Assembly (NCBI RefSeq): GCF_026226615.1
Contig: NZ_JAJAPB010000011.1
Location: 1-64,000 of the forward strand
Direction of reading: 5' to 3'
DNA from: Geovibrio ferrireducens
Lineage (GTDB): Bacteria > Chrysiogenota > Deferribacteres > Deferribacterales > Geovibrionaceae
Length of the DNA: 64,000 nucleotides
How positions within the stretch are numbered: position 1 is the first letter of the stretch; each line of letters begins with the position of its first letter. Made by a program: the position numbers and the translations under genes. The notes under the pieces were generated by a model, which saw only the letters and a program-made list of their open reading frames with translations, ran no database searches and was not told the origin of the DNA. Shown piece after piece: positions 42,096-63,684 of the stretch.

Positions 42096-44084
42096 ATGTG
42101 CTTATTGAATAGCTTAAGGAGAAAACTTCTCTTAGTTACGGCTCTGTTTTCTCTGTTATGCACGGCAGGATTTGTATCCTCTGCATACGCGGATGAAAAC
42201 CTGTCACCCATGCAGTCCGACATGGCTCAGACTGCTCAGTTCATGCCTCTTCAGGAGGTACTGAAAGATATTGTTAAAACAAACCCGGAAGTTCTTGAAG
42301 CTCTGAAAAGGTACCAGACGGTCAAATCAGAACTCGGAATGGCCAAAAGCGGCTACAGACCTAACATAAGCGCTGAAGCCAGCATCGGGCCGGAAGTCAC
42401 AAAAGGCTACGACACCAATTATGAAAGTGAAGACCTTATCGCAAGAAGAGCAGGAATATATGCGCGCCAGAACCTCTTTAACGGAATGCACACTTCAAAT
42501 TATGTTAAAGAGACTGAATCACGCGTAAAAGCAGCAGCTTATGATGTCCTCAATACTGCGAACAGGGTTTTTCTGGAAGCAGCGGAAGCTTATCTGGAAG
42601 TTCTGAAAACTGCAGAACTGGTTGAACTGGCCAGACAGAATGTTATTACGCAGGCTCAGATACTTAAACAGATAAAAGAAAAAACTGATTCCGGCTTCGG
42701 AAGGGCATCTGATCTTTCCAACTCAGAATCACGCTTCGCACTCTCCAGAAGCAACTTCATCTCTCAGCAGCAGGATCTTAATCAGGCAATAGTGAAATTC
42801 CACAGGCAGTTCGGCCGCATCCTCAGACCGGAAGTGTTCATAGTGCCCGAACCTGAGGGAACCCTTCCTTCCACAAAAGAAGAAGCTGTTGATATGGCTC
42901 TTCATGTGCATCCTGCCCTCCGTGTTGCAAACTATAACATAGAGGTAAGGAAGTACACTCTCTCCAAAGACAAATCAGCCTATTGGCCTTCACTTGACCT
43001 CGAACTTCAGGCTGAACACAGCAACGATGTCGGCGGTGATGACGGCTGGACAAACAACGCAGGAGCTTTCCTGAAACTCAGCTACACTTTATATGACGGC
43101 GGCATAAGAAAAGCACGCAAAGCCGGCAACTATGAATCAATGCTTAAAGAGTATCAGAGAAGCTACATCGAACGCAGAAATGTCAATGAGACAGTCGGCC
43201 TTGCATGGAACATTTTTATCGCTGAGCAGACAAAGAAACTGTTCCTCACCGAACACGTTGACATGAGCGAAAAAACCCTTGTTGAGTTTAAAGAGGAATA
43301 TCACCTCGGCAGAAGAACTCTTCTTGAGCTGCTTGATATTGAAACAGAATATTTCACTGCGCAGAACTCATTTGTTCAGTCAAAATTCTCTTTCCTGACA
43401 TCATACTACAGGCTTGCTCAGGCAACAGGCATGCTTCTCAACGAGTTTGAAACCGGTCTCTTCGAAAAAGTGGATCTCAAAGACTACAAAGACGAATTTG
43501 ACTACGCTCTTTACAAAAAACTCGGCGAAGACAGAGATAAGGATACAGTGAAGGACACTGCTGACCAGTGCGACAACTCACTGCTTAATTCTGACACTCT
43601 GCCTTGGGGCTGCTTTGATAAGAGAGGTCTTGAAGTAGGCTATAATGTTCCTGAAAAAATAGAGCCTTATATCCTCCCGAAAGAGCAAAGACCCGCAGTC
43701 AAAGAACAGAGAGTTCTTGCCATAGACGAATCGAAAAAGGAACAGTCCTTCCATCTGGACATAATCAATTTCAACTTCGACTCAGCAGAACTCACACCTG
43801 AAGCGCGCGAGTATCTTAAAACCATAGCCGGACAGCTTAAAGCGCTTAAAGACTACAAACTTGAAATAGTCGGCCACACCGATATTTCCGGTACAAGAAG
43901 ATATAACCAGCAACTTTCCGAAAAAAGGGCAGAAACAGTGGTGAATGAACTTGCGGCTCTGGGTGTTGATAAAAATATCATGACATCCTACGGCAAAGGA
44001 AGCGCATCACCTATCGTCAGCAACCAGACCCTTGAAGGAAGACAGAAAAACAGACGTATAGAGTTTAAGCTTATCAGAAACTGA
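42096..44084 (+). CDS. lapE: LapE-like outer-membrane channel: TolC fused to OmpA
   Basis: Outer-membrane exit pore for the adhesin. A long signal peptide ends near SSAYA. Residues about 50-460 are a TolC-family protein in two repeats (LYDGGIRKARKAG and HLGRRTLLELLDIETEY are standard landmarks). A short thrombospondin-type-3-like segment (DRDKDTVKDTADQC) leads to a C-terminal OmpA domain (FNFDSAELTPEAREYL, HTDISGTRRYNQQLSEKRAE, RRIEF) with the diaminopimelate-binding Asp and Arg in place. The fusion would anchor the pore to peptidoglycan. AGGAG lies 8 bases before the ATG. It begins the operon lapE-lapG-lapD-lapB-lapC-luxR. Confidence 0.9.
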   Translation: MCLLNSLRRKLLLVTALFSLLCTAGFVSSAYADENLSPMQSDMAQTAQFMPLQEVLKDIVKTNPEVLEALKRYQTVKSELGMAKSGYRPNISAEASIGPEVTKGYDTNYESEDLIARRAGIYARQNLFNGMHTSNYVKETESRVKAAAYDVLNTANRVFLEAAEAYLEVLKTAELVELARQNVITQAQILKQIKEKTDSGFGRASDLSNSESRFALSRSNFISQQQDLNQAIVKFHRQFGRILRPEVFIVPEPEGTLPSTKEEAVDMALHVHPALRVANYNIEVRKYTLSKDKSAYWPSLDLELQAEHSNDVGGDDGWTNNAGAFLKLSYTLYDGGIRKARKAGNYESMLKEYQRSYIERRNVNETVGLAWNIFIAEQTKKLFLTEHVDMSEKTLVEFKEEYHLGRRTLLELLDIETEYFTAQNSFVQSKFSFLTSYYRLAQATGMLLNEFETGLFEKVDLKDYKDEFDYALYKKLGEDRDKDTVKDTADQCDNSLLNSDTLPWGCFDKRGLEVGYNVPEKIEPYILPKEQRPAVKEQRVLAIDESKKEQSFHLDIINFNFDSAELTPEAREYLKTIAGQLKALKDYKLEIVGHTDISGTRRYNQQLSEKRAETVVNELAALGVDKNIMTSYGKGSASPIVSNQTLEGRQKNRRIEFKLIRN

Positions 44085-44098
44085 TGTTATACTGAGTA

Positions 44099-44761
44099 AT
44101 GATAAACTTTAAACGAATAATGCTTATAGTATCCGCAGCAGTGACAGTTTATGTCGCTGCTGCGGTTTCATCTGAGATGTTTTATGTTCCGGAGGATGTC
44201 CGAAGCACCTTTAAAAGCCGTTATGGTGATCAGGCTGATAAAAGGCTTGCCGGGCTTCTCAGTCTTATGAATGAGATTGCGTCCGCCGACGAGGAAACAA
44301 AAATTATTGAGGTCAATAAGTTTTTCAATCAGGTTGAATACCGTTCTGACGCGCTGGTGTGGGGTAAGAGCGATTATTGGGCAAGCAGGCTGGAGTTTAT
44401 AGGGAAGGGGATGGGTGACTGTGAGGATTATGCCGTGGCAAAGTTCCTTACTCTCATTCAACTTGGTGTTCCTCAGGAGAAACTTTTTCTCACGTACGTT
44501 AAAGCCATAGGTTATGCCGAGGTTGCTCACATGGTTGTATCATATTACCCGCAAAAAGGCGCTGTTCCGCTTGTTCTTGATAATTACAACAAGCAGATTC
44601 TGCCCGCAACTAAAAGAAACGATCTGGTTCCCGTTTACAGCTTCACTGCTAATGATCTCTACATACAGAAACAGCAGGGGCTCGGAAAAAGGGTTAATCC
44701 CTCCTCGTCCAAAAACCTGCAAAAGCTGAAAGAAATCGACCTTGAAATATATAAGAGGTAA
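44099..44761 (+). CDS. lapG: LapG-type periplasmic cysteine protease
   Basis: Transglutaminase-like cysteine peptidase that cuts the adhesin N terminus and frees it from the cell. An N-terminal signal/anchor helix (IMLIVSAAVTVYVAAAV) is followed by the catalytic triad in order: Cys in GMGDCEDYA, His in EVAHMVV and Asp in LVLDNYN. WGKSDYW precedes the Cys as in LapG. Length 220 residues matches. In known systems it needs calcium and is held by c-di-GMP-bound LapD. It lies directly before lapD, as in Pseudomonas. Confidence 0.93.
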   Translation: MINFKRIMLIVSAAVTVYVAAAVSSEMFYVPEDVRSTFKSRYGDQADKRLAGLLSLMNEIASADEETKIIEVNKFFNQVEYRSDALVWGKSDYWASRLEFIGKGMGDCEDYAVAKFLTLIQLGVPQEKLFLTYVKAIGYAEVAHMVVSYYPQKGAVPLVLDNYNKQILPATKRNDLVPVYSFTANDLYIQKQQGLGKRVNPSSSKNLQKLKEIDLEIYKR

Positions 44762-44766
44762 CTAAA

Positions 44767-46710
44767 ATGACTCTATTCCGACAGTTACAGATTTTTGTGA
44801 CAGTAATGCTGCTGGCGGTTCTGGGTATTGTTCTGCAAATTAATTTCAGCGATACCAAGGAATACGTGCGCAATCAGTTATACACAAATGCAAAAAACAC
44901 GGCTAACTCCCTTTCTCTCTCAATGAGCCCTTTTATGGATGATCTTTCCATAATGGAGACAATGATAAACGCCATGTTCGACGGCGGTTACTACGAGGAG
45001 ATAACCCTGATAAAACAGGACGGAACCGTGGCTTATTCAAAGAGTGAGAACATAGCTGTGGAGGGTGTTCCGCAGGCTTTTATAAATATGGTCAGGCTTG
45101 AGGCTCCTGTGGCTGAGGCCGCAGTATCAGGCGGCTGGAGCATATACGGAACGCTTAAGGTCAAAGTGCATCTGGGGCATTCATACTTGCGCCTGTGGGA
45201 AACATTCAAACAGCTTTGCCTGTGGTTTGTTGTTCTGGGCGGTCTTGCCTCGCTCGTAAGTTATTTCATTCTTAAACTTATTCTCGCTTCTCTCAATGCC
45301 ATAAAAGCTCAGGCAGAGGCAGTGGGGAACAATGAATTCATAATAAACGAGCGTGTGCCTAAAACCCCTGAGCTCAGGCAGGTTGTTCTTGCCATAAATG
45401 CAATGGTTCAGAAGGTGCAGGGTATTTACAACCGTGAGGTTGAAACACTCCAGAAATATCAGGAACTGCAATACAAAGATGCCCAGACAGGTCTTTATAA
45501 CCGTAAATATTTCATAAAACAGTTCAGCAACTTCGTTTCATCCAATGATGAGCGTTCAAAAGGTGAGGTCATACTCTTCTCATTTGAAGGGCTTGAAAAA
45601 GTGCATCAGATGTCAGGATTTCAGGTTGTTCAGCAGCTTTACGACTTTGCCTCTGCCACAATGAAGGAGTGCACGGTAAACAAGCTTTACTCCTTTGTCT
45701 CCTGCCTCAATTCAAATGACTTCGTGATAACACTGCCTTCGTCCGATGTTGAGGAGAGTACTCTCTGCACTAAAATAATCTATTCCAAAATAAAAGATTT
45801 TGTTGATGCAAACAAAGAGTTCAGCGGGCATACGGACTTTGCCGCAGGCATAGTCAGCTACAACGAAACAGACAGTATAAGCAGTGTTCTCACTAAGGCC
45901 GACTATGCGCTTTCTGCCGCAAAAAATGCCGCAGAACCGCATCTGGATCATTTCCGGGATGACGGAACAAAGCTGATTCTCGGTAAACTGGAATGGAAGA
46001 AGATGATAGAATCCGCCCTCAGCGAACAGAGGTTTATGCTCACATCACAGCCTGTTGTCTCTGAAATAGGGGAGCTCCACAGGGAGATATTCATCAATAT
46101 GATCGACCTTCAGGGGCAGATACAGAGGGCAGGGTATTTTATGCCTATGGTTATCAAGCTCTCTCTTGCCAATGATGTGGATCAGTACGTGCTGAGGCAC
46201 GCCACCGATTTTCTTGATAAAAATCAGGGAATTACCCTCGCTGTCAATGTTTCCAACGACTTCCTCAAGGACAGGGAATCCTTCACGTGGTTCAGAAAGT
46301 TCCTTTCCTCCGTCAGACACCTTAACAGCAGACTTGTGTTTGAAATACCGGATGAGGCGATAGGCAAAAGCTTTGACATATGCCTTGATTTCTCCGGTCT
46401 GCTGAAAGGTACAGGGTTCAAATTCGGCATAGACAGGTTCGTTATGAATGAAACCTCAGTCAAATATCTTCATCTGCTTAAACCGGACTATATCAAGGTT
46501 GAGCAGGACTATCTGCTTGATATTGAAAATAACGGTGATGCGGGTATCGCGCTCAATGCTTTCCTCACGATTACCGAAAGTCTGGGTATAAAACTCATTG
46601 CAACCAAAATAGAAAACGAGGAACAGAAAGCAGTGCTTGAAGCAAGACAGATAAAATACTTTCAAGGAAGGGGAATTGCGGATATTTCCCCATTGGGCGA
46701 TAAGAAATGA
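44767..46710 (+). CDS. lapD: LapD-type c-di-GMP receptor, degenerate GGDEF/EAL
   Basis: Inside-out signalling protein that captures LapG when c-di-GMP is high. Helix 1 (about 9-25), a periplasmic LapD/MoxY-type domain to about 150 (with GGWSIYGTLKVKVHLG), helix 2 (about 155-175), HAMP, then GGDEF and EAL domains. GGDEF is replaced by LNSNDFV and EAL by EIFINM, so both are catalytically dead, as in LapD; DRFVMNETSVKYLHLLKPDYIKVE keeps the binding-type surroundings. GAGG is 8 bases before the ATG. It overlaps lapB by 4 bases. Confidence 0.93.
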   Translation: MTLFRQLQIFVTVMLLAVLGIVLQINFSDTKEYVRNQLYTNAKNTANSLSLSMSPFMDDLSIMETMINAMFDGGYYEEITLIKQDGTVAYSKSENIAVEGVPQAFINMVRLEAPVAEAAVSGGWSIYGTLKVKVHLGHSYLRLWETFKQLCLWFVVLGGLASLVSYFILKLILASLNAIKAQAEAVGNNEFIINERVPKTPELRQVVLAINAMVQKVQGIYNREVETLQKYQELQYKDAQTGLYNRKYFIKQFSNFVSSNDERSKGEVILFSFEGLEKVHQMSGFQVVQQLYDFASATMKECTVNKLYSFVSCLNSNDFVITLPSSDVEESTLCTKIIYSKIKDFVDANKEFSGHTDFAAGIVSYNETDSISSVLTKADYALSAAKNAAEPHLDHFRDDGTKLILGKLEWKKMIESALSEQRFMLTSQPVVSEIGELHREIFINMIDLQGQIQRAGYFMPMVIKLSLANDVDQYVLRHATDFLDKNQGITLAVNVSNDFLKDRESFTWFRKFLSSVRHLNSRLVFEIPDEAIGKSFDICLDFSGLLKGTGFKFGIDRFVMNETSVKYLHLLKPDYIKVEQDYLLDIENNGDAGIALNAFLTITESLGIKLIATKIENEEQKAVLEARQIKYFQGRGIADISPLGDKK

Positions 46711-48854
46711 GCAGGAAAATATCATCCGATTCACTGATGAACTGCCTGGTTCTGCTGACCAAGCTGAACAACAGGCCTGCCACTATGGAAGCCCTGGCTT
46801 ACGGCTTGCCTTTTGACCCGAAGAAGGAGAAGCAGTCTCTTTTTGATGTTGAGAAATCGAAGGCAAATTTTTCCCGTGCGGCTGCCAACGCAGGCTTTAA
46901 ATCCACTCTTGTGAAAAGACGGATTGAAGATCTGCCTGCGGTTGTTCTCCCTGCCATTCTTCTGCTTGAGAACGGGAACGCATGTGTTATCACGGCTATT
47001 GATCATACAGGGAAAAGAGCGGAGATCGTCATCCCTGATATTGATGAAACGCCTATGGAAACAGATTTTGAGAAGCTCAATGACGAATATCTCGGTTTTG
47101 CCTTTCTCCTGAAAAAGAATTATGAAGGCTACAGGCCGGAGGACTCCGCCTCATCCGAAGGGGATCGGGATAACTGGTTTTTCGGTACACTCTGGAAATT
47201 CAGGGATATATACTGGAATGTTCTGCTGGCAACCCTTCTGATAAACATATTTGTCATAGCGGGCCCCATGTTCACAATGAACGTGTACGACAGAATTATC
47301 CCCCATAACGCTGTGGATACTCTGTGGGTTCTGGCCATCGGCATATCAACAGTCTATATCTTCGATCTTATTCTTAAATATCTCAGAACCCAGTTTCTGG
47401 AAGTGGCTGCCAAAAAGAGCGATGTAATTCTCTCTTCCATACTTTTTGAGCAGTCCCTCAACCTGAAAATGAAGAACAAACCCAGAACCGTAGGTTCTTT
47501 TGCCAACAACCTCAGAGAGTTTGACGGAATCAGAGGATTTTTTACATCCGGCGCTGTAGTGGCGTTCATCGAGCTTCCGTTTGTTGTTATCTTTCTCTTG
47601 GTTATCTATTACATAAGCCAGCTTTTGGTTCTTGTTCCCCTTACAACCATACTGCTGATACTTCTCTACAGTTTTTTTATGCGCAATCCCATCAAACGCC
47701 TCGCCGACAGCACACACGAAGCATCAGCCCGCAAAAGCGGTATTCTGGTGGAGGCTCTGTCCAATCTGGAGACAATCAAAGCGTTTAACGCCAACAGTTC
47801 AATCCAGTGGCACTGGGAGGAGAGCACGGGGGATATAGCCGCCAAAGGGCTCAAATCCAGAGTGCTTTCAAGCTCGCTGAGCACAGTTGCCGCATTCCTG
47901 ACGCAGCTGAGCAGTGTTGCGGTGGTTATTGCCGGGGTTTATCTCATTAAAGAGGGTGAACTCACCATGGGCGGGCTTATCGCAACGGTTATACTCTCCT
48001 CCAGAACCATAGCGCCCATGTCTCAGGTGGCTTCGCTGCTCACCGGTTATGAGCAGATGAAAACAGGCTTAAGCGCGCTTAATGACCTTATGAAAAAAGA
48101 GATAGAGCGCCCGGACAGAAAGCTTTTCCTCAGACGTCCGGTGTTTAAGGGAGCTATCGAGTTCAAAGATGTGACTTTCCGCTATCCTGATGAAACAAAG
48201 AATGCCCTCACTGGGGTCAGCTTCAAGATCAACCCCATGGAAAGAGTGGGGATAATAGGGCAGGTAGGTTCGGGGAAATCCACATTGGCAAAAATACTCA
48301 TGGGGTTTTATGACCCGGATGAGGGCAGTGTTTTTGTGGACGGTATAGACATTAAACAGATAGACCCGGCGGATCTGCGGCATAATTTCAGCTATGTTCC
48401 GCAGGATGTGTCTCTTCTTTCCGGCTCAGTGAGAGAGAACATCACATTTAAGGCTCCTCATTCGGAGGATTCTGAAATTATACGCGCAGCAAATATAGGC
48501 TGCGTGACTAATTTTACTGACCGCCACCCCATGGGGCTTGATGTAAATGTGGGTGAAAGAGGGGGAAACCTCTCCGGCGGACAGAGACAGTCTGTTGCAG
48601 TGGCGCGCGCTTTCCTTGTGAACAGCCCCATAATCCTCATGGATGAGCCTACCAACTCAATGGACTACACGACCGAAATGAGGGTCATTGCCAACCTTAA
48701 AGAGGCGACAAAGGATAAAACCACAATAGTCATCACCCATAAACCCAGCATTCTGGAAATTGTTGACCGGATTATTGTTTTCGATAACGGAAGCATAGTC
48801 ATTGACGGTAAGAAAGAAGACGTGCTGGCAAAACTCGGAGGCAACCGAAAATGA
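46707..48854 (+). CDS. lapB: LapB-type type I secretion ATPase/permease
   Basis: Inner-membrane ABC exporter for the adhesin, 715 residues. Residues about 1-140 are a C39-peptidase-like domain without the catalytic Cys-His arrangement, the form that recognises RTX/Lap substrates without cutting. The membrane domain has six helices (about 165-440). The nucleotide domain shows Walker A GQVGSGKST, signature LSGGQRQSVAVARAF and Walker B IILMDEPTNSMD. It is coupled to lapD and lapC by ATGA overlaps. Confidence 0.95.
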   Translation: MSRKISSDSLMNCLVLLTKLNNRPATMEALAYGLPFDPKKEKQSLFDVEKSKANFSRAAANAGFKSTLVKRRIEDLPAVVLPAILLLENGNACVITAIDHTGKRAEIVIPDIDETPMETDFEKLNDEYLGFAFLLKKNYEGYRPEDSASSEGDRDNWFFGTLWKFRDIYWNVLLATLLINIFVIAGPMFTMNVYDRIIPHNAVDTLWVLAIGISTVYIFDLILKYLRTQFLEVAAKKSDVILSSILFEQSLNLKMKNKPRTVGSFANNLREFDGIRGFFTSGAVVAFIELPFVVIFLLVIYYISQLLVLVPLTTILLILLYSFFMRNPIKRLADSTHEASARKSGILVEALSNLETIKAFNANSSIQWHWEESTGDIAAKGLKSRVLSSSLSTVAAFLTQLSSVAVVIAGVYLIKEGELTMGGLIATVILSSRTIAPMSQVASLLTGYEQMKTGLSALNDLMKKEIERPDRKLFLRRPVFKGAIEFKDVTFRYPDETKNALTGVSFKINPMERVGIIGQVGSGKSTLAKILMGFYDPDEGSVFVDGIDIKQIDPADLRHNFSYVPQDVSLLSGSVRENITFKAPHSEDSEIIRAANIGCVTNFTDRHPMGLDVNVGERGGNLSGGQRQSVAVARAFLVNSPIILMDEPTNSMDYTTEMRVIANLKEATKDKTTIVITHKPSILEIVDRIIVFDNGSIVIDGKKEDVLAKLGGNRK

Positions 48855-50218
48855 TAAACGGCAAAAATTCCTCCGGCCATAAAAACGGAAACGGTAAAAA
48901 AAGCGTTCTTAACAGTGACATTGAGTTTATGAACAGCCTTAATGCCGCTGTGCTCCAGAAAAGCCCTATAAAAATGTCGCTGATACTTTACGTAATCACC
49001 GCACTTATAATAGTGCTTTTCACATGGGCATATTTCACAGAGCTTGATGAGCTCACAAGAGGCATAGGCAAGGTTATTCCTTCCCGGCAGGTTCAGGTGA
49101 TTCAGAACCTTGAAGGCGGGATAGTAAAGGAACTCAGAGTTAAGGAAGGCCAGTTTGTTAAAACCGGAGAGGTACTTGTTGTTATAGATGACACAGGTGC
49201 CGGAAGCTCATATCAGGAAGGACGGGCAAAACTCGGCGAGCTTAAGGCAAGAGCAGTAAGGCTCAAAGCCGAAGCCGGCATAGCCGGGTTTGTAATAGAT
49301 GAGGAAGCCAAAACAAACTACCCGCAGCTTATCATGGAGGAGCAGAGGCTCTATGAAACGAACACAGCCCGCAGGAACAGCGAGAAGGAAGTGTTTGTCC
49401 AGAGGTTTAAGCAGCGGCAGGTGGAATTGGCGAATGCGCGCCAGAGGCTTAAAAACCTCCATACCAGCAAAGGTATGATACAGAGGGAAATAGAGCTGAT
49501 GGACCCGCTTTTCAAAAAAGGTCTGGTTTCGGAGCTTGAGTTTATTCAGCTCAGGCAGAAAGAGCTTGATAACCGCAAGGAGATTGACGAGACAGTGAAA
49601 AACATCGAATCCCTTGAACATCAGGTTATTGAGGCGAGAAACGCCATAGGCGAAATTGAAGGACGGCAGAAAAGTGAGGCGCAGACTGAGCTTAACAAGG
49701 TCATAGCTGAAATTGAGCAGATCTCAAACTCTCAGGTGGCTATTGAGGACAGAGTGAGGCGTACCATGGTGCGCTCCCCTGTGGACGGTACTGTGAAACA
49801 GCTTTTCATCAACACTGTGGGTGGTATTGCCAAACCGGGTATGGACATTATAGAGATAGTGCCCAATGACGACAAACTGCTTGTGGAAGCGAAAATCAAG
49901 CCTTCCGACATAGCATTTGTTTACCCCGGACAGAATGCAGTTATCAAGCTCACAGCGTATGATTTTGCGATTTACGGCGGTCTGGAAGGGAAGGTTATAC
50001 ACGTCAGTGCGGACACTATCACCGATGAAAAGGATGAGGAATACTACCTTGTCAGAATCGAAACGGACACTAACTACCTCGGAACGGAGGACAACAAAAA
50101 AGACATAATGGTCGGCATGACAGTTCAGGCGGACATAATTACGGGCAAAAAGACAATTATTCAGTACATCATGAAGCCGATTTTAAGGGCGAAGTACAAC
50201 GCGCTAAGGGAAAGATGA
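48851..50218 (+). CDS. lapC: LapC-type membrane-fusion protein (HlyD family)
   Basis: Periplasmic adaptor that joins LapB to the outer-membrane pore, 455 residues. One N-terminal helix (ILYVITALIIVLFTWAYF), a lipoyl/barrel-sandwich domain (RQVQVIQNLEGGIVKELRV, shortened as NLEGGIVKELRVKEGQ), long coiled-coil hairpin (about 130-280), and beta-barrel region with MVRSPVDGTVKQLFINTVGG, a standard HlyD signature. Frames overlap lapB and the LuxR gene. Confidence 0.95.
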   Translation: MINGKNSSGHKNGNGKKSVLNSDIEFMNSLNAAVLQKSPIKMSLILYVITALIIVLFTWAYFTELDELTRGIGKVIPSRQVQVIQNLEGGIVKELRVKEGQFVKTGEVLVVIDDTGAGSSYQEGRAKLGELKARAVRLKAEAGIAGFVIDEEAKTNYPQLIMEEQRLYETNTARRNSEKEVFVQRFKQRQVELANARQRLKNLHTSKGMIQREIELMDPLFKKGLVSELEFIQLRQKELDNRKEIDETVKNIESLEHQVIEARNAIGEIEGRQKSEAQTELNKVIAEIEQISNSQVAIEDRVRRTMVRSPVDGTVKQLFINTVGGIAKPGMDIIEIVPNDDKLLVEAKIKPSDIAFVYPGQNAVIKLTAYDFAIYGGLEGKVIHVSADTITDEKDEEYYLVRIETDTNYLGTEDNKKDIMVGMTVQADIITGKKTIIQYIMKPILRAKYNALRER

Positions 50219-50808
50219 TGAAAATAACTGTTGTAACTGATGATAACCGCTTTTTTGAATATGTTGAGTCAGCCGTCAGAATGAACGGCTGCAGTTTTAT
50301 GAGATATAACCGTGATAAGGCAGAGGAATCTGTAAAGAATGCGGACTTGCTGGTGGTGGATCTTCTTTCCTCAGACAAACAGATTCCTGTCGGAGTCTGC
50401 CCTGTGGCTGTTTTCTCCGCTGTTCCGGGGTACAATGAGGCAGTACGCTTCCTTCATAAGGGAGTAAAGGGTTACGGTAACAGGTTCATGAACCCGGAAA
50501 ACCTTAACCAGATGCTTCATACTGTGATTTCTGGACAGGTATGGCTTCCTCCTTCAATACTCAGCAGGCTGATAGCCTCAGTGCCGCAAAACGGCACTTC
50601 ACGGCTTGAGGCGGGCTTTTTTGATGACCTCAGCGAGAGGGAGCAACAGGTGGCTGAACTGATAGGGCGGGGTATGAGCAATAAGGAAATTGCCGATTCC
50701 ATGGGGATCACCGTGCGCACTGTCAAGGCGCATCTCTCATCGGTTTTTGTAAAAACCGGATGCCGGGACAGGCTGGAGGTTGCCCTCAAGCTGAAAGGAA
50801 GTGTATGA
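50218..50808 (+). CDS. LuxR/NarL-type regulator with degenerate receiver
   Basis: Transcription factor, 196 residues. The N-terminal 115 residues resemble a receiver: an Asp is present at DLLVVDLLSS and acidic DD near residue 9, but the conserved Lys of the last strand is missing (GVKGYGNRFM). The C-terminal GerE HTH is intact (LSEREQQVAELIGRGMSNKEIADSMGIT as key segment). ATG 50215 or 50218; the latter suits the AAGGG spacing. It closes the lap operon with an overlapping start, so its expression is tied to secretion genes. The c-di-GMP motif of VpsT-like proteins (W-F/L/M-T/S-R) is not present; WLPP occurs instead. Confidence 0.85.
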   Translation: MKITVVTDDNRFFEYVESAVRMNGCSFMRYNRDKAEESVKNADLLVVDLLSSDKQIPVGVCPVAVFSAVPGYNEAVRFLHKGVKGYGNRFMNPENLNQMLHTVISGQVWLPPSILSRLIASVPQNGTSRLEAGFFDDLSEREQQVAELIGRGMSNKEIADSMGITVRTVKAHLSSVFVKTGCRDRLEVALKLKGSV

Positions 50809-51239: not shown

Positions 51240-54200
51240 CTATCCGCCTATTTCTGTACCATCATCAGTGAAAGTGACTTTGATGTGAGTGTCTGTCACT
51301 TCAAAGGTTACTCCGCCTTCGAAACTGATGTTTGCGCTGCCGTCGTTGACAACAAGGTGACCGTTATCCACAGAGAATGCTCCGTCGGAGTTGTCTATGG
51401 TTACGAAGTCGCCCTCATTACCTCTGATAACGAGTTCGTTATCAGCATCAGTAATCGCCAGAACATCATGAAGGGTCAGGTTGTTCAGCGTGTTGTCGCC
51501 GCTGGTAAGGTCTATCTCTTCGATGTTCCTTACAACATCAGCTATGTTGCTGAAATCAAGCTCGCCGCCGCCTATTACGAGTGTATCGTAACCTGCGCCT
51601 GCGTCTATGAGGTCAGCAGTCGGGTCGAATGTGATAGTATCCGCACCGTCAGTTCCGTGAACTACATGAAGCGGAGCATCGCCTATGCTTATCACGAGGT
51701 GAGCAGTGTCACTGTCGCCGTCAGGCTGAGTAAGTTTGTACTCAAAAGTTTCAGTCTGACCTATGCTGTCTGCATTCGCAACAGGAGTGTAGGTGTACGA
51801 ACCGTCAGCTTTTATTACCAGTGTGCCGTATTCGCCGATGATTGTTGTTCCTGCCGCATCGGGTGAAACGTAGTCTGTTCCGTTGAATACGGTGAATGCT
51901 GCGCCTTCTGAGCCCATATCATCCACAGCGCCCCACTGGTCGTCACTGCCGAGGTAGTTGTTGGCATCCGTAAGCACGTTGCCTGAAACCATTGCAGCCA
52001 CAAGATACTCATAGCTTTCGGTTACAGTAGTGATATTGATGTTGGAGTAGTTTACAGTAAATGTTCTGGGGTTCTTCCCGCCAGTCTGATCATTTGCTGT
52101 GAGTTGGAGTCTGTATGTGCCTTGTTCCAGACTGCCTGTTGTTACAGAACCGTTTGCACCATTTGTCACAGAACCGCTTTCAACGTTAACCCATGTTCCG
52201 TTAACAAGTTTCTGAACAGCCCATGTGAAAGTATCACCGTTGTTAAAATTACTTATTGAGTAGCTGAAACTCAGTGAAGATGATTCTCCGCTTGCAACAT
52301 CAAATGAGCCTGTCGTTTTCTGACCGTAAGTACCGACTGCTGTTCCGCTGTTTGTATCGTATATACTGCCGGAATCCAGAAGCTTGCTTGTCTCAGTGAC
52401 AGAAGGTGCCTCAACTGTGCTTATTACCGCATGGTTAGCGTTGTCAGCCGCAAATACTTCGCTGCTGTCTGTTGTTGTGAGCGTAAGTGTAGCTTCGGAA
52501 GTTTCACCGTCAGCATCCTGTATTACATACTTGATTTCGGCTGTCACATCGTCAGCAACATCTGTTCCGGAGGTGTATTCATACCTTCCGTCACTGTAGA
52601 TTGTTACCTTGCCTGCTTCGCCGAGGTCAAAGGTATGCTCTGTTGTTGAGGAATCGAACTCCACTGTCACTCCGTTGTACTCAACAGATACAAGCTGGGG
52701 TGAACCTGCACCGTCATCACCGAAGTCATCGTTGTCAAGCAGATTGCCTTCAACAGTGTTCAGGTTCACTGTGCCCTCAAGTATGGCGGAGAGCTGGTTA
52801 TCGTTTGTAACCATTATTACGTTGCCGCTGTGGTTGTTGTCAGCATCACTCGTCCATGCAACCATTCCAAGCTGCTGAGTATTGCTTATTCCTGAACCCA
52901 CTCCGATTGCGAAAACTTCATCAATACCTGAAGTGCTGAGGAAGTTAGTCCACGTTGTGCGTTCTCCACTGCTTATAGAGTTATCGTTTCCTCCGTCGCT
53001 GCCCATGGGCTCACCGTCTGAGAGGAAATAAACATAAGTTTTATCCGCATCAGGAGCGTCGGTGTAAGAGGTTCTCACAACCTCTATAGCGTGGTCATAG
53101 TCGGTATAGTTTTTAGTGGTGAGACCTTCAATGGCGGTTTTAGCCTGTTCAGCAGTGAGCCATTTCTCTCCGTCTATTGTGTAAAGCTTAGCGCTGTCAT
53201 TAAAATCGACAAGCATTACACTTCCGAGAGAATCACCGTACTTATCGATAAGGTTTTGCAGAGCCGCTTTGGCAATCTGGAGTCTTGTGAGGCTGCCGAC
53301 CTTATCATTCATACTTGTTGATGTGTCGATCACAAGGACAAGGTTGACAGTCTGAGTCGTTGAGCTGCCTTCAACAACACTCACATAGTCGTTCTGAGCA
53401 ACGGGGACATCATTGGTGTTTGCTACTTCAACAGTTACTGTCGCAGTGTCAAATCCGCCGTTTCCGTCAGTCACGGTGTATGTGAATGTATCTGTTCCGC
53501 TGAATCCCTGTACAGGTGTGTAGCTGAACGTGCCGTCCTGATTAAGGGTTACTGTTCCGCCGTTTTCAGATGTTCCGTCATATGTGTGAATGCTGAGGCT
53601 GTCGCCGTCAACATCAGTGTCATTATCCAGAACATTGATAATAACGCTTTCGTTTTCATTTGTTTCAGCGAAATCATTTTCTGCAACCGGAGCATCGTTA
53701 ACGGGTGAAACCACAAGGTAAACCGTTGCTGTGTCCTCTCCGCCGTTGCCGTCTGAAATGGTGTATTCAAACTGAGCAGGGCCGTTGTAGTCAGCGTCAG
53801 GTGTGAACGTCACGCTTCCGTCATCATTAAGAACAACCTCTCCGTTAACCGCGTTGCCCACGCCTATTATGGTGAGTTCATCGCCGTCTATGTCAAAGTC
53901 GTTATCAAGAAGATCCGCAGCAGTAAAGTCTATTGCTGTGTCTTCAGCGGTAGTGTATGTGCCTTCGTTGGTCAGAAGGGTGTATGTGAGTCCGCCGTCA
54001 TCACTTATCATAGGCTGGAACACATATTCGCCGCCCTGATCCCACCAGTACATATCAATGTCGTACCATCCGCTTTCTTCAATTGTGAAGGAATCGTGTA
54101 CGTGCGTTGCGGGTGACTGGTTGTTAACAAACTTCGCCACGCTTTCGCCGTCTATGAGTATGTCATAGCCATCGTCAGCGTATACTTTGAAGTTGTAAGT

Positions 54201-57200
54201 GCCTGCTTCGATCCAGATTTTGCCGCTTATATGGAAGCCGCCTTCCGGTGTATCTGTCTGTCCGTTGACATATTCAAGCGAAGCGCCGTCATGGTTGAGG
54301 AACTCTGCCAGACTGTTGCCTGTGGACACGCCGTTGTTATTGCCGTAGCCGTACCAGATTTTTGTGGCTTCAAAAGTAGCCGCGGGATCTGTTGTATCGA
54401 CTATGTGCTTGAACTCAGTCAGGTTATCTATCAGGTAACCGTTGTCATTATTATACGTGCTGCCTGAGAGCCCGTTGAACTCTGTGCTTACAGCATAGTA
54501 GTTGCCTGAAAGTCCTGAGAAGCTGAAATTAGGTCTTCCGTCATCAACAGCCACAGGAGCGTCATTCACCGGGTTAACGGTAATGTTTACAGTAGCAGTG
54601 CTTGTTTCGCCGCTGGGGTCTGTTATTGTGTAAGTGAAGCTGTCATCACCGTTGTAGTTCTCATTGGGAACATAAGTGAATGTTCCGTCCTGATTAAGCG
54701 TAACAGTACCGTTTTCAGGCTGAGTGAAGTCATCAATGGATATGTCATCGCCGTCAACATCATAGTCGTTGTCGAGAACACCGAAGGTCACTGAGCCGTC
54801 TTCATCCACTTCAACTTCATCGTTAACAGCCACGGGCGCATCGTTTGTACCTTTAACTTTGATTGTGATGAACCCTTCTTCTGATTCGGCATTAGCCGCG
54901 CCGGAGTTGTCTGTGGCAGTGAAGGGGATCTTAAGAGTTAATATCTCGCCTTTTGCCAGACTGTCATAAGCGGGGTCAGCCGGGTCGAATGACCATGTAC
55001 CGTCTGAATTGAATGTGAAGCCTGCGGGTGCATCATCAACCAGTGCGAATGTATGGGTATCGCCGTTATCAATGTCGTAGGCCTTAACCTGTCCGCTGAT
55101 TTCGTCTCCGCCTTCGTAGACTGTTTTAGATACGTTTTTAACCCAGGGCTGGTCGTTTGTGCCTGTTACTGTAATTGTGATTGTCCCTGTCTCGGAGATT
55201 GAGTTGAGGGAGAATGAATCATCAACAGCAACATATTTCACGGTGAGAATTATCTCCTGACCTTCTCTCAGGCTTTCATACGCCGGGTTAGAAGGGTTGA
55301 AGCTGTACTCGCCGTTGGGCAGCAGTATAAAGCCTGCGGGCAGTTTTCCTGCGGGGAGGAATATATGGTTGTCGCCTTCGTCCACATCTGTCACATCAAG
55401 CTGACCGGTGTATTTTGCGCCGTTTTCATATACGCCGAACTCAACGTCTTCAACTTCCGGTCTGTCGTTTGTGCCTATAACCTTGATGGTTATCATGCCT
55501 TCTTCTGATTCGGCATTAAAAGCACCTGAACTGTCTGTGGCAGTGTAGGGGATCTTAAGCACAAGCACATCGCCTTTTGCGAGGCTGTCGTAAGCATCGT
55601 TGTCAGGGTCAAATGACCATGAGCCGTCGGGGTTCAGTGTGAAACCTGCGGGAGCGTCATCAACCAGAGCGAAAGTATGGGTATCGCCGGTATCTACATC
55701 CGTTACCTCAAGCTGTCCGTCAATAACTCTTCCGTCCTCGAATACGACTTTGGAAACGTCTTTGACTTCGGGCTGGTCGTTTGTGCCTGTTATTGTGACG
55801 GTTACGGTTTTCGTAACTGTACCGTCAAAAGAGGTTACTTCAAACGTGTCGGTAACTTTAGCGCCTTTGGGAAGCGACTGAACGATTATATTATCGTTAT
55901 CAAGTTCATATGTCCATTTGCCGTCCGCATCTATGGTGAATTTACCATAAGTGCCTTCTGCATCTTCAACGGGTCTGACAGAGCTTTCTCCTGTGTCAAC
56001 ATCCAGAACAAATATTCTGCCGGAAGTGCCGAGTTTGACATCCTCAACAACTGCGCCTTTAAAATCGCCTATCATAAGCGGAACATCATTTGTTCCCACT
56101 ATGGTGACAGTTACAGTTTCTGTGGCAGTACCGTCAAAGGATTCAACAGTGAATTCTTCTGTCAGTGTTGCTCCTGCGGGGAGGCTCTGTATAGAGGGGT
56201 GCAGGTTGAGCGCTGTATATTTCCAGTTTCCGTCCTCGTCCATTACGAATGCGCCGTATTTACCGATCTGTGCGGAGGGTTTAAAGGAGCTTTCGCCGGT
56301 ATCAACATCAACTATATCAAGCTTTCCGTTGGTGCTGAGGAGCAGGAAGTTGCTGTCTTCCGTAACAGAACCGCTGTCCTGACCGCTTATAACGGGTACA
56401 TCGTTAGTGCCTGTTATAGTTACGGTAATTTCATGGGTAGCGGAACCGTCAATGGAGGTTACAGTGAATTTCTCAGTCAGAGTCGCGCCTTCGGGGAGTG
56501 ACTGAATGGCTGAGCTGCCGTTTGTTGCTGTGTATGTCCATACGCCGAGCGGCCCCATAGTAAATGTGCCGTATTCGCCTTTGACTATTTCAGGTTTAAA
56601 GAAATCCTGAAGAAGGTCAGCATCGTCAATGGTAAGGATTCCGCCAGTTACCAGTTTGCCGAAGATAACATTCTGATCTTCCGTAACGAAGCCTTCATCC
56701 TTGCCGCTTATAACGGGTACATCATTAGTGCCCACTATTGTGACTGTTACTTTCTGGGTAGCTGTGCCGTCCAGAGAAACGACAGTGAAGGATTCTTTCA
56801 GTATTGCTCCCTGGGGGAGGAACTGAACAGCATCATTATTGAGGTCATAGACCCAGTTGCCTTCCTCATCAATGCTGAATGTGCCGTATTTACCTGCTGT
56901 GGTTTCCTGAACACGGAAATAGCTTTCGTTTTCGTCTATATCGGCTATATCAAGCTTACCGGAAGTGAAAAGCACTTCACCGTCTTCGTAAACAGTGCCT
57001 TTTTTATCGCCGGAAATTTCGGGAACATCATTTGTGCCTGTGATAGTTATTGTGACAGTTTCAGAGGCTGTACCGTCCACAGAGTAAACAACGAATGACT
57101 CGGTGAGTGTGGCTTCTGCGGGCAGAGCCTGAACATCGCCGTTTTCGTTGTTAAGCTGGTATGTCCAGTTGCCGTCAGCATCCATTACGAATGAGCCGTA

Positions 57201-58682
57201 AATACCCGTCTGTTCGGAAGGCTCAAAGAAGCTTTCGCCGGTGTCAACGTCAGCTATGTCAAGCTTGCCGGAAGTGAAAAGCGCTTCGCCGTCTTCATAA
57301 ACGCTGCCTTCAGCTTCGCCTGTTATAACGGGTACATCGTTTGTACCTGTAATAGTTATGGTTACTGTCTCTGTTGCAGTACCGTCAAGGGAGATAACTT
57401 CGAAAGTTTCAGTGAGGGTCACTCCGGCGGGCAGAGCCTGAACTGCAGGGTTCTCATTATTGAGGCTGTATGTCCAGTTGCCGTTTTCATCCATTACGAA
57501 TGAGCCGTATTCACCTTCCTGTTCAGCGGGCTGGAAGAAGCTTTCGTCGGTGTCAACATCAGCTATGTCAAGCTTGCCGGAAGTGAAGAGAGCTTCGCCG
57601 TCCTCAATAACATCGCCTGATGCTTCACCGGTTATAACGGGTACATCGTTTGTACCTGTAATAGTTATGGTTACAGTCTCTGTTGCTGTACCGTCCAGAG
57701 AAACAACTTCAAAGCTTTCTGTGAGAGTAGCTCCTGCGGGCAGAGCCTGAACAGCGGGATTACCGTTATTGAGGCTGTATGTCCAGTTGCCGTTTGCATC
57801 AAGTGTGAACGAGCCGTATTCTCCTGTAAGTTCGGAGGGGCGGAAGAAGCTTTCGCCTTCGTCTATGTCATCTATAGTCACCTGACCGTTTACGGAGGTT
57901 ACTACATCTTCAATGACATTGCCTTCATCCCCGGTGAGCACAGGAACATCGTTAACGGGGTTAACAGTTATTTCCACTGTGTAAGTGGCTGTGCCGCCGT
58001 TTCCGTCGTTTATTACATAGGTGAAGCTGTCCGGACCGTTATAGTTGGAGTTGGGGGTGTATGTGTAGGAACCGTCGGGGTTGATAACGAGAATACCGTT
58101 AACCGGGGGTGTTCCTACAGAGTAGGTTACGTTATCGCCGTCTAAGTCAGTCGCAGCGGGAAGCTGGCCTGAGAAAACGCCGTCTTCGTCCATAATGATG
58201 GCATCATCAGCCGCCACAGGGTCAGTATTACCTGCTCCCTCTTCATCCGCAGCGTCAAGTCCGCCTTCATCCTCAGCCGCATCAAGGAGGTAACTGCCTA
58301 CCTGACCTGCTGTGTCGTCACCGCCGTAGTAAGATGCGAGGAATTCGAACTGGTCTCCTTCGCCTGCGGCTGTTTCTTCTTCGATGTCATCAATGTTTTC
58401 ACCTGCTTCAAGTGCAGCCTGAAGGGCATCAACATCGGAAACAGAAGCATCTCCGCTTTCCACTGAGGCTATTACAGTTTCATCGAGCATCATCTCAGCA
58501 TTTTCGCCGAGAGATATTTCCTTGTTGTCAGCGAGCGTGATAACCACTGAACCGCCGATTCCGGTCTGGATGATTTCGTTTTCAAAAACTATATCACCGA
58601 CTCCGAGTGTGCGAACCTGACCGTCAGCACCGAGTGCCGTTACCGTTCCGCTGATTGATTTGATTGTTCCTGCCTGAGCCAT
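51240..58682 (-). CDS. lapA: LapA-like giant surface adhesin (VCBS repeats, PA14, VWA)
   Basis: 2480-residue type I-secreted adhesin. Residues 1-110 are the retention module that plugs the pore, with a TAAG site at 104-107 for LapG. An acidic linker and a cadherin-like domain reach about 245. Seven VCBS repeats of about 103 residues (about 250-975, each ending TITGTNDVP-like) and three of a second type (about 975-1290) follow. Then cadherin-like domains surround a PA14 domain (about 1385-1560), and a von Willebrand A domain (about 1777-1960) has the metal site DTSTS. The end has a worn RTX-like segment (GTDGADTITFD, LIDAGAGYDTLVIGGG) and an uncleaved C-terminal secretion signal ending TDDGTEIGG. 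AGAGG precedes the ATG by 6 bases. It is transcribed toward the lap operon, not from it. Confidence 0.93.
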   Translation of the reverse strand: MAQAGTIKSISGTVTALGADGQVRTLGVGDIVFENEIIQTGIGGSVVITLADNKEISLGENAEMMLDETVIASVESGDASVSDVDALQAALEAGENIDDIEEETAAGEGDQFEFLASYYGGDDTAGQVGSYLLDAAEDEGGLDAADEEGAGNTDPVAADDAIIMDEDGVFSGQLPAATDLDGDNVTYSVGTPPVNGILVINPDGSYTYTPNSNYNGPDSFTYVINDGNGGTATYTVEITVNPVNDVPVLTGDEGNVIEDVVTSVNGQVTIDDIDEGESFFRPSELTGEYGSFTLDANGNWTYSLNNGNPAVQALPAGATLTESFEVVSLDGTATETVTITITGTNDVPVITGEASGDVIEDGEALFTSGKLDIADVDTDESFFQPAEQEGEYGSFVMDENGNWTYSLNNENPAVQALPAGVTLTETFEVISLDGTATETVTITITGTNDVPVITGEAEGSVYEDGEALFTSGKLDIADVDTGESFFEPSEQTGIYGSFVMDADGNWTYQLNNENGDVQALPAEATLTESFVVYSVDGTASETVTITITGTNDVPEISGDKKGTVYEDGEVLFTSGKLDIADIDENESYFRVQETTAGKYGTFSIDEEGNWVYDLNNDAVQFLPQGAILKESFTVVSLDGTATQKVTVTIVGTNDVPVISGKDEGFVTEDQNVIFGKLVTGGILTIDDADLLQDFFKPEIVKGEYGTFTMGPLGVWTYTATNGSSAIQSLPEGATLTEKFTVTSIDGSATHEITVTITGTNDVPVISGQDSGSVTEDSNFLLLSTNGKLDIVDVDTGESSFKPSAQIGKYGAFVMDEDGNWKYTALNLHPSIQSLPAGATLTEEFTVESFDGTATETVTVTIVGTNDVPLMIGDFKGAVVEDVKLGTSGRIFVLDVDTGESSVRPVEDAEGTYGKFTIDADGKWTYELDNDNIIVQSLPKGAKVTDTFEVTSFDGTVTKTVTVTITGTNDQPEVKDVSKVVFEDGRVIDGQLEVTDVDTGDTHTFALVDDAPAGFTLNPDGSWSFDPDNDAYDSLAKGDVLVLKIPYTATDSSGAFNAESEEGMITIKVIGTNDRPEVEDVEFGVYENGAKYTGQLDVTDVDEGDNHIFLPAGKLPAGFILLPNGEYSFNPSNPAYESLREGQEIILTVKYVAVDDSFSLNSISETGTITITVTGTNDQPWVKNVSKTVYEGGDEISGQVKAYDIDNGDTHTFALVDDAPAGFTFNSDGTWSFDPADPAYDSLAKGEILTLKIPFTATDNSGAANAESEEGFITIKVKGTNDAPVAVNDEVEVDEDGSVTFGVLDNDYDVDGDDISIDDFTQPENGTVTLNQDGTFTYVPNENYNGDDSFTYTITDPSGETSTATVNITVNPVNDAPVAVDDGRPNFSFSGLSGNYYAVSTEFNGLSGSTYNNDNGYLIDNLTEFKHIVDTTDPAATFEATKIWYGYGNNNGVSTGNSLAEFLNHDGASLEYVNGQTDTPEGGFHISGKIWIEAGTYNFKVYADDGYDILIDGESVAKFVNNQSPATHVHDSFTIEESGWYDIDMYWWDQGGEYVFQPMISDDGGLTYTLLTNEGTYTTAEDTAIDFTAADLLDNDFDIDGDELTIIGVGNAVNGEVVLNDDGSVTFTPDADYNGPAQFEYTISDGNGGEDTATVYLVVSPVNDAPVAENDFAETNENESVIINVLDNDTDVDGDSLSIHTYDGTSENGGTVTLNQDGTFSYTPVQGFSGTDTFTYTVTDGNGGFDTATVTVEVANTNDVPVAQNDYVSVVEGSSTTQTVNLVLVIDTSTSMNDKVGSLTRLQIAKAALQNLIDKYGDSLGSVMLVDFNDSAKLYTIDGEKWLTAEQAKTAIEGLTTKNYTDYDHAIEVVRTSYTDAPDADKTYVYFLSDGEPMGSDGGNDNSISSGERTTWTNFLSTSGIDEVFAIGVGSGISNTQQLGMVAWTSDADNNHSGNVIMVTNDNQLSAILEGTVNLNTVEGNLLDNDDFGDDGAGSPQLVSVEYNGVTVEFDSSTTEHTFDLGEAGKVTIYSDGRYEYTSGTDVADDVTAEIKYVIQDADGETSEATLTLTTTDSSEVFAADNANHAVISTVEAPSVTETSKLLDSGSIYDTNSGTAVGTYGQKTTGSFDVASGESSSLSFSYSISNFNNGDTFTWAVQKLVNGTWVNVESGSVTNGANGSVTTGSLEQGTYRLQLTANDQTGGKNPRTFTVNYSNINITTVTESYEYLVAAMVSGNVLTDANNYLGSDDQWGAVDDMGSEGAAFTVFNGTDYVSPDAAGTTIIGEYGTLVIKADGSYTYTPVANADSIGQTETFEYKLTQPDGDSDTAHLVISIGDAPLHVVHGTDGADTITFDPTADLIDAGAGYDTLVIGGGELDFSNIADVVRNIEEIDLTSGDNTLNNLTLHDVLAITDADNELVIRGNEGDFVTIDNSDGAFSVDNGHLVVNDGSANISFEGGVTFEVTDTHIKVTFTDDGTEIGG
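58362..58373 (-). other. Predicted LapG cleavage site (TAAG) in the adhesin
   Basis: Codons for Thr-Ala-Ala-Gly at residues 104-107, flanked by EEE and EGD. In P. fluorescens LapA the TAAG at nearly the same position (about 107-110) is cut between the two alanines. No second TAAG is near the N terminus. Confidence 0.8.
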
Positions 58683-63489: not shown

Positions 63490-63684
63490 TTTTTTGCTCG
63501 CTTTTAGCACATTGGATTCATTTTTTGTACCGTTTTATAGTTTTCCAGCTTAAATTGCATCTTGAATTCCATATTTATCTTATCATTACTAGAGAGTAAT
63601 AACAACTCATAAGGATTACGCTTATGGGTGTCTGTAAATGAGGCAACATTTTTTAGATTCACTTGTAAATAAAGGAAAATATAA

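What the first reader, a model, noticed from the sequence alone, without database searches (positions are those of the whole stretch)
42096..44084. TolC-OmpA fusion as adhesin pore
The LapE equivalent carries a thrombospondin-3-like linker and a full OmpA peptidoglycan-binding domain with the ligand-binding Asp and Arg. In the described Pseudomonas systems LapE is a plain TolC-like protein. A pore tied to peptidoglycan would resist the pull of a cell-surface adhesin plugged in it, a mechanical reason for the fusion.
Basis: partly seen in the sequence, partly recalled or inferred. Interest (0 to 1): 0.6.

Follow-up and report, generated by a model that had tools for sequence, protein, structure and literature searches.

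The report
Adhesin pore with fused cell-wall-binding domain
A bacterial outer-membrane pore that holds a giant surface adhesin carries a built-in domain of the kind that grips the cell wall; many related bacteria encode the same kind of domain as a separate protein beside the pore, so this is probably a fused anchor part rather than something wholly new.

Summary
The 662-aa gene at 42096-44084 is a TolC-family type I secretion pore (LapE position) joined to an OmpA domain with both peptidoglycan-binding residues (D596, R611). It starts an operon lapE-OmpA / lapG / lapD / lapB / lapC / luxR beside an adhesin with a LapA retention module. Eleven of 12 genomes searched in its family (Geovibrionaceae, Deferribacterota) have it. 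It is not unique. Of 79 LapG-first loci, 34 hold a full tolC: 3 fused to OmpA, 18 with a separate OmpA gene next to tolC or lapG, 13 with neither. A TolC-first survey found 9 more fusions with lapG in the region and 10 without; a tree needs 10 changes of state, and one fusion has the reverse order. Most separate genes encode a lipoprotein with one TSP3-like repeat, the same layout as the fused linker plus domain; the Shewanella one (SO4321) has a reported role in biofilm formation. Against a simple wall tether: 4 of 11 family fusions lost the Arg, and all 18 single-repeat lipoproteins have Ser for the Asp. Best reading: a fused accessory anchor of the adhesin pore, probably wall-binding in the window's genus. 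New variant of a known kind; mechanism untested.

The parts
42096..44084 (+). lapE-ompA: TolC-family T1SS outer-membrane pore (about residues 50-449) + linker with one TSP3-like repeat (about 478-506) + OmpA domain (559-653) with D596 and R611
   Evidence: Pfam OEP and OmpA, TIGR01844 over cut-off; AlphaFold2 model and Foldseek; D/R by alignment
44099..44761 (+). lapG-like periplasmic cysteine protease (PF06035), GDCED motif intact
   Evidence: PF06035 2.8e-14; NF045674 LapG 5.6e-52 but below its cut-off (176 of 320 bits); alignment
44767..46710 (+). lapD-like c-di-GMP receptor: LapD_MoxY_N, GGDEF, EAL
   Evidence: PF16448 1.7e-35, PF00990, PF00563; NF045673 1e-101, below its cut-off (341 of 1020 bits)
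46707..48854 (+). lapB: T1SS permease/ATPase, LssB type
   Evidence: TIGR03375 over cut-off (869 of 693 bits)
48851..50218 (+). lapC: HlyD-family T1SS adaptor
   Evidence: TIGR01843 over cut-off (396 of 209 bits)
50215..50808 (+). LuxR-type regulator closing the operon; a homologue follows lapC in the 10 other family operons
   Evidence: PF00196 4e-15; neighbours
51240..58682 (-). LapA-type giant adhesin, 2480 aa: retention module (about 3-109), TAAG at residues 104-107, VCBS/cadherin-like repeats, VWA, BapA/Bap/LapF-type region
   Evidence: NF033682 retention_LapA over cut-off (76.3 of 50), VCBS and NF045619; VWA; TAAG position

Best explanation
The protein is the outer-membrane pore (LapE) of a LapA-type type I secretion system, into which an accessory OmpA-type anchor module has been fused. 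Steps: (1) LapB, LapC and LapE export the adhesin, and its N-terminal retention module stays behind and plugs the LapE pore (described for Pseudomonas; inferred here). (2) Each LapE protomer ends in a flexible linker with a TSP3-like repeat and an OmpA domain, so a TolC-type trimer would present three OmpA domains around the pore (inferred from the fold). (3) In the window's genus these domains bind diaminopimelate in peptidoglycan through D596/R611 (residues shown, binding inferred), holding the loaded pore to the wall so that pulling on the adhesin does not drag the pore or membrane away, and/or keeping the pore where LapC meets it. (4) LapG cuts the adhesin when c-di-GMP falls and LapD lets it go, releasing the adhesin but leaving the anchored pore (inferred from gene content). 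A like job may be done in many gammaproteobacterial lap operons by a separate TSP3-OmpA lipoprotein.
For: Domains and fold. Full lap operon and adhesin with retention module. The two other TolC-type matches in the same genome lie in ORFs of 470 and 434 aa (the second with a stop inside) without an OmpA match. Found in 11 of 12 family genomes; the one without it (G003) also shows no LapG and no retention module. A retention module is matched at E 0.001 in 31 of the 32 fusion-bearing genomes searched, but over the curated cut-off in only 18, many of the rest being short weak hits, and no set without fusion was searched beside G003. Separate OmpA next to tolC or lapG in 18 of 34 LapG-first loci; the 18 single-repeat proteins (17 of those loci plus plasmid L065) share an N-terminal Cys at the lipobox place and a TSP3-like repeat. 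Repeated change: 10 changes of the fused state on a TolC tree of 136 rows, gains and losses not told apart, one fusion in reverse order, OmpA before TolC (L169). The Shewanella equivalent SO4321 is reported to have a role in biofilm formation (PMC4523816, passages). Asp/Arg pair intact in 7 of 11 family fusions and 10 of 12 lapG-linked fusions outside it. Precedent for a periplasmic partner that strengthens an adhesin's anchor: TpgA/AtaA (PMC13082670, abstract; TpgA's NCBIfam model also matches this OmpA domain, below its cut-off).
Against: No binding or mechanics was measured. Arg611 is Met in 4 of 11 family fusions (L038, L040, L044, L045) with the surrounding motif changed. The OmpA part evolves faster than the TolC part everywhere tested, in those four (dN/dS 0.06-0.17 against 0.03-0.07) and in the window's genus too (0.06-0.10 against 0.02-0.03; dS near saturation in several pairs). 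Asp is Ser in all 18 single-repeat lipoproteins and in the fused L173; L190 has neither residue in its first OmpA domain and Ser/Arg in its second. The OmpA-domain tree (99 columns, weak support) does not place the fused domain with the gammaproteobacterial lipoproteins, so common descent of the module is not shown. Many TolCs with lapG nearby have no OmpA (13 of 34; 35 of 46), so the module is dispensable in other lineages.
Confidence: 0.6

Rival explanations
1. Assembly or positioning factor: the OmpA domain docks LapE at a suitable place and height in the wall so that the LapB-LapC-LapE complex can form; load bearing is secondary.
For: TolC's equatorial domain is proposed to meet the peptidoglycan, and E. 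coli TolC has a lipoprotein partner, YbjP, bound at the equatorial domains in 3:3 stoichiometry and proposed to anchor and orient it (PMC13082787, PMC13095208, passages). SO4321's reported biofilm role would fit export failure as well as anchoring.
Against: TolCs without OmpA evidently manage assembly in many lap loci. The two other TolC-type matches in the window genome have no OmpA part, but the surveys looked for LapE-like TolCs and so cannot say how rare OmpA is on other TolCs.
Confidence: 0.25
2. The OmpA-like module does not bind peptidoglycan but has become a protein-docking domain (for LapG, the retention module or LapC), as the altered Asp/Arg in several lineages suggests.
For: D to S in 18 of 18 single-repeat lipoproteins; R to M in 4 of 11 family fusions; linker repeat invariant in the 12 fusions of A2, three of the R-to-M ones among them.
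Against: In the window and most lapG-linked fusions the full binding pair is kept (7 of 11 and 10 of 12). Ten of 19 fusions of the TolC-first set have no lapG in the region held, so LapG docking is unlikely to be the general reason.
Confidence: 0.12
3. Incidental fusion: OmpA domains are abundant, and this one adds nothing specific to adhesin retention.
For: OmpA-type matches are plentiful in the genomes searched; the fused state comes and goes on the tree.
Against: Repeated, both-order fusion and repeated neighbourhood with the same partner, low dN/dS, and presence in 11 of 12 family genomes.
Confidence: 0.03

Closest known systems
Pseudomonas fluorescens LapEBC-LapA-LapD-LapG system
   Same: TolC-type pore, LssB-type ABC protein, HlyD adaptor, LapD, LapG and an adhesin with a LapA retention module
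   Different: LapE there is called TolC-like, and no OmpA part is mentioned in the passages read (PMC6890996, PMC13090378). Pf0-1 itself was not tested here; the Stutzerimonas locus L111 has a plain 451-aa TolC.
Shewanella oneidensis Bpf system (BpfA, AggABC, SO4321, BpfG, BpfD)
   Same: OmpA-family protein encoded between the T1SS genes and the lapG homologue; reported role in biofilm formation (PMC4523816, passages)
   Different: OmpA is a separate protein; in the 9 Shewanella loci read here it looks like a lipoprotein and its Asp is Ser. SO4321 itself was not fetched.
Acinetobacter AtaA-TpgA
   Same: A periplasmic auxiliary protein strengthens a giant adhesin's outer-membrane anchor (PMC13082670, abstract); NCBIfam calls TpgA peptidoglycan-associated
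   Different: Type Vc trimeric autotransporter and a separate partner; the force computed in that paper comes from TpgA's N-terminal domain, not from wall binding; no LapD/LapG release
E. coli TolC-YbjP
   Same: Accessory partner of a TolC-family pore at its equatorial domain
   Different: YbjP is a lipoprotein of another family, and its authors doubt avid peptidoglycan binding (PMC13082787, passages)

Membership tests
TolC-family T1SS outer-membrane pore (TIGR01844) | match above the curated cut-off and TolC fold | tested here: met
   243.2 bits against 225.15; Foldseek TolC hits, prob 1.00
LapD/LapG-controlled type I adhesin system | LapG-type BTLCP protease and LapD-type receptor in the same operon | tested here: met
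   PF06035 and PF16448+GGDEF+EAL; the NCBIfam equivalogs match but stay below their cut-offs
LapD/LapG-controlled type I adhesin system | adhesin with LapA retention module near the operon | tested here: met
   NF033682 76.3 bits against 50; TAAG at 104-107; that TAAG is a LapG site is recalled, not from a call
LapD/LapG-controlled type I adhesin system | adhesin retained in the LapE pore and cut by LapG under low c-di-GMP | not testable with these tools
   needs experiment
OmpA-type peptidoglycan-binding domain (PF00691) | domain match over gathering score | tested here: met
   76.9 bits against 27.2
OmpA-type peptidoglycan-binding domain (PF00691) | Asp and Arg that bind diaminopimelate (A. 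baumannii D271/R286) | tested here: met
   D596 and R611; role of the residues from PMC6572160 passages; no residue alignment to A. baumannii OmpA was looked at, the positions are taken from the family motif (recalled)
OmpA-type peptidoglycan-binding domain (PF00691) | binds peptidoglycan | not testable with these tools
   needs pull-down
Thrombospondin type 3 repeat (PF02412) | Pfam match | tested here: not met
   no match at E 0.1 among the 12 A2 members; motif only. 7 of 22 other fusions (E 0.01) and 4 of 21 separate OmpA proteins (E 0.1) do match

The most novel reading that the evidence does not exclude
An OmpA-type anchor subunit is an overlooked component of LapA-type adhesin secretion systems in several phyla: encoded as a separate TSP3-OmpA lipoprotein in some, fused to either end of the pore more than once in others, tying the adhesin-loaded pore to the cell wall (with lineages in which the wall-binding residues have since been replaced). 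SO4321 of Shewanella would be its first genetically tested member.
Probability: 0.45. Interest if true: 0.6.

Novelty: new variant of a known kind. Interest (0 to 1): 0.42.

Why it matters
How a TolC-type pore withstands the load on a giant adhesin plugged in it is, as far as I know, open. If an OmpA module is the load-bearing link to the wall, the unexplained biofilm role of SO4321-type genes gets a mechanism that can be tested in one laboratory strain, and it would parallel the auxiliary anchor TpgA of trimeric autotransporters.

Tried and rejected
Rejected: that the fusion is a frameshift or assembly artefact (same architecture in 11 of 12 family genomes and in other phyla). Rejected: that it is confined to this genome. 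Not shown: descent of the fused domain from the gammaproteobacterial lipoprotein. The 99-column OmpA tree puts generic OmpA domains between them with weak support; its 8 generic rows came from loci picked as good hits to this protein, and the OmpA proteins of the window's own genome (L002, L003, L005), meant to be included, did not come out of that script. The careful version of the first TolC tree did not finish and the quick one is used; the larger tree is quick, LG+G4, SH-aLRT only.

Rows dropped: L072 left out of the counts (same lapE as L043/G009). From the tree, 19 loci were left out by hand as near-duplicates or very divergent (L046, L048, L049, L072, L085, L092, L095, L114, L149, L195-L197, L250-L253, L255-L257), and TolC matches of 250 bits or less by rule. 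Searches gave 12, 50 and 56 rows; G059, G064 and G065 were already held (L073, L083, L093), and 14 rows were not fetched (13 with ORFs of 562-581 aa, one partial hit); the other 101 rows lie in the 100 regions counted. In some searches at most 3 candidates per genome were scored (5), with E limits 1e-45 and 1e-40, so those counts are lower bounds. 'No lapG' means none in the region held, at most 20 kb and often cut by a contig end.

Doubtful rows: in the LapG-first 'neither' class L149's TolC is very divergent and may not be a LapE, and L127 and L131 have an OmpA-family gene close by on the opposite strand. L185 counts as 'separate OmpA' on a 1.2-kb distance, a weak case. L093 and L171 are 98% identical, so the 12 lapG-linked fusions outside the family are 11 distinct ones. 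The lipobox pattern matched 16 of the 17 single-repeat proteins tested; L090 (Cys present, pattern missed) and L065 were judged by eye. L038 has a split lapG and is the one family fusion that scores as without lapG.

The D. vulgaris DvhE/BfsE pore could not be checked; the three papers searched do not contain the word OmpA. Print: four searches for a TolC-OmpA pore or OmpA in lap loci listed no title or abstract start that describes one; most listed papers were not opened, and the library is an open-licence subset.

Full report
WHAT IS THERE. The ORF 42096-44084 (+) is 662 aa. Residues about 50-449 are a TolC-family pore (Pfam OEP, two stretches; TIGR01844 243.2 bits against a cut-off of 225.15) and 559-653 an OmpA domain (76.9 bits against 27.2). 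AlphaFold2 with 18 aligned sequences (mean pLDDT 81) gives the TolC helix-strand pattern, a low-confidence stretch at 481-539, and an alpha/beta domain at about 549-661; Foldseek against the PDB finds TolC entries first and, lower down, the domains of PA0833 and OprF. D596 and R611 occupy the places of the Asp and Arg that PMC6572160 names as binding diaminopimelate in A. baumannii OmpA (passages); the mapping uses the family motif, recalled, not a residue alignment to that protein. The linker carries one degenerate TSP3-like repeat: four Asp and two Cys are invariant in the 12 relatives aligned, but Pfam TSP_3 does not match it. A lipobox pattern is found in none of 13 fused N-termini.

SURROUNDINGS. 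Downstream on the same strand, with gaps of 14 and 5 bases and then overlaps, come lapG-, lapD-, lapB- and lapC-type genes and a LuxR-type regulator. Opposite lies a 2480-aa adhesin with a LapA retention module over its cut-off, TAAG at residues 104-107, VCBS repeats and a VWA domain. So this has all the parts of a LapA-type system. The two further TolC-type matches of the genome lie in ORFs of 470 and 434 aa (the second with a stop inside), apart from the OmpA matches.

WHOSE IT IS. The window lies in a 2.97-Mb genome of 46 contigs. L072, named Denitrovibrio sp. BM704, has a lapE identical to that of G009, a member of the same family f1; Denitrovibrio is Geovibrionaceae, Deferribacterota. Of the 12 family genomes searched 11 have the fused gene and the same operon order; G003 shows neither LapG nor a retention module. 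LapG is matched in those same 11 of the 50 genomes searched in the phylum, always below the family's cut-off.

HOW COMMON IS IT. Without the duplicate L072, 34 of 79 hold a full tolC: 3 fused (L073 and L074, Desulfobacteraceae MAGs; L093, a gammaproteobacterial MAG), 18 with a separate OmpA gene next to tolC (17) or lapG (1), and 13 with neither. In the other 45 no full tolC lies in the stretch held. Nine of the 18 are Shewanella, so they are not independent. TolC-first: 964 genomes of three groups, namely the phylum of L073, the class of Shewanella L083 and the phylum of Arcobacter L147, gave 118 rows; 100 regions were fetched and hold 102 TolC genes. Of the 46 with lapG in the region 9 are fused, 2 have a separate OmpA and 35 have neither; of the 56 without lapG there 10 are fused, 3 separate and 43 neither. 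All 22 fusions of the two surveys match both Pfam OEP and OmpA. On a quick TolC tree of 136 rows the fused state needs 10 changes, gains and losses not told apart; the L093/L170/L171 group lies far from the window's clade there, and L169 has the reverse order: signal-like N-terminus, OmpA, TolC. I take it that fusion happened more than once.

THE SEPARATE FORM. The single-repeat OmpA genes beside tolC encode about 200 aa: a Cys at the lipobox place, one TSP3-like repeat with two Cys, and OmpA (Pfam TSP_3 matches only 4 of 21 separate proteins). A second form (L062, L077, L079) has about four such repeats. In the window the layout is TolC, then one such repeat, then OmpA: what would result from joining tolC to such a neighbour without its lipoprotein signal. 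Gene order fits too: tolC-ompA-lapG-lapD-lapB in Salinivibrio (L065) and tolC-lptE-ompA-lapG-lapD-lapB-lapC in Marinomonas (L062). PMC4523816 (passages) reports that S. oneidensis SO4321, annotated as OmpA family and lying between the T1SS genes and bpfG, has a role in biofilm formation; its authors call the protein's part in the process unknown and guess at translocation of BpfD and BpfG or help with BpfA's placement.

RESULTS AGAINST A SIMPLE TETHER. The Arg is Met in 4 of the 11 family fusions (L038, L040, L044, L045). The OmpA part evolves faster than TolC among those (dN/dS 0.06-0.17 against 0.03-0.07), but also in the window's genus (0.06-0.10 against 0.02-0.03); dS is near saturation in several pairs. 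The Asp is Ser in all 18 single-repeat lipoproteins (17 in the LapG-first loci plus L065), while L062, L077 and L079 keep both residues. Among 12 lapG-linked fusions outside the family 10 keep the pair; L173 and L190 do not. The OmpA tree does not join the fused domain to the lipoproteins. So the position and layout recur more firmly than the chemistry, and shared descent of the module is not shown. The retention-module search of 32 fusion-bearing genomes matched 31, but only 18 over the cut-off, and lacked a set of genomes without fusion beyond G003, so it does not show that fusion goes with retained adhesins.

MECHANISM. Shown: domain content, gene order, retention module, recurrence, conservation. 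Inferred: trimeric LapE presents three OmpA domains on flexible linkers that grip the wall, so the plugged adhesin's load passes to peptidoglycan; LapG releases the adhesin when c-di-GMP falls. Parallels: binding of TpgA's N-terminal domain about doubled the computed peak force needed to pull out the AtaA anchor (PMC13082670, abstract), and YbjP binds E. coli TolC and is proposed to anchor it, though avid wall binding is doubted (PMC13082787 and PMC13095208, passages). The chief rival is an assembly or positioning role.

VERDICT. Observation confirmed; interpretation partly supported; new variant of a known kind.

Noticed in passing
L062:15094-15750 (Marinomonas algicola plasmid): The LapG homologue has Ala where the other 8 aligned LapGs have Cys (GDAED; the others GDCED or ADCED), so it may be inactive.
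   Followed up: no
L038 (G004), L041 (G007): lapG and lapB in L038 and lapB in L041 are each split into two ORFs: decay or sequencing error.
   Followed up: no
L046, L047 (G011, G006): A second T1SS without lapG/lapD in the region has a 745-746-aa TolC with a degenerate OmpA-like region, next to a giant ORF.
   Followed up: partly
L194-L197, L202, L250-L257, L261 (Campylobacterota): Lap-operon TolC ORFs without OmpA but with 130-175 residues before the TolC domain (first possible start taken); several of these loci also hold a second, weaker LapG-like gene beyond lapC.
   Followed up: no
alignment A4: Five of 22 TolC-OmpA fusions also match cadherin-like or Big_9 domains; which members and where was not resolved.
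   Followed up: no
L073, L074: The two Desulfobacteraceae fusions branch beside the window's genus inside the Deferribacterota clade: horizontal transfer or MAG contamination.
   Followed up: no
window 58911-63510 (-): Two long ORFs with NPPY motifs that look like DNA methylases or a restriction-modification pair next to the adhesin (read by eye, not searched).
   Followed up: no
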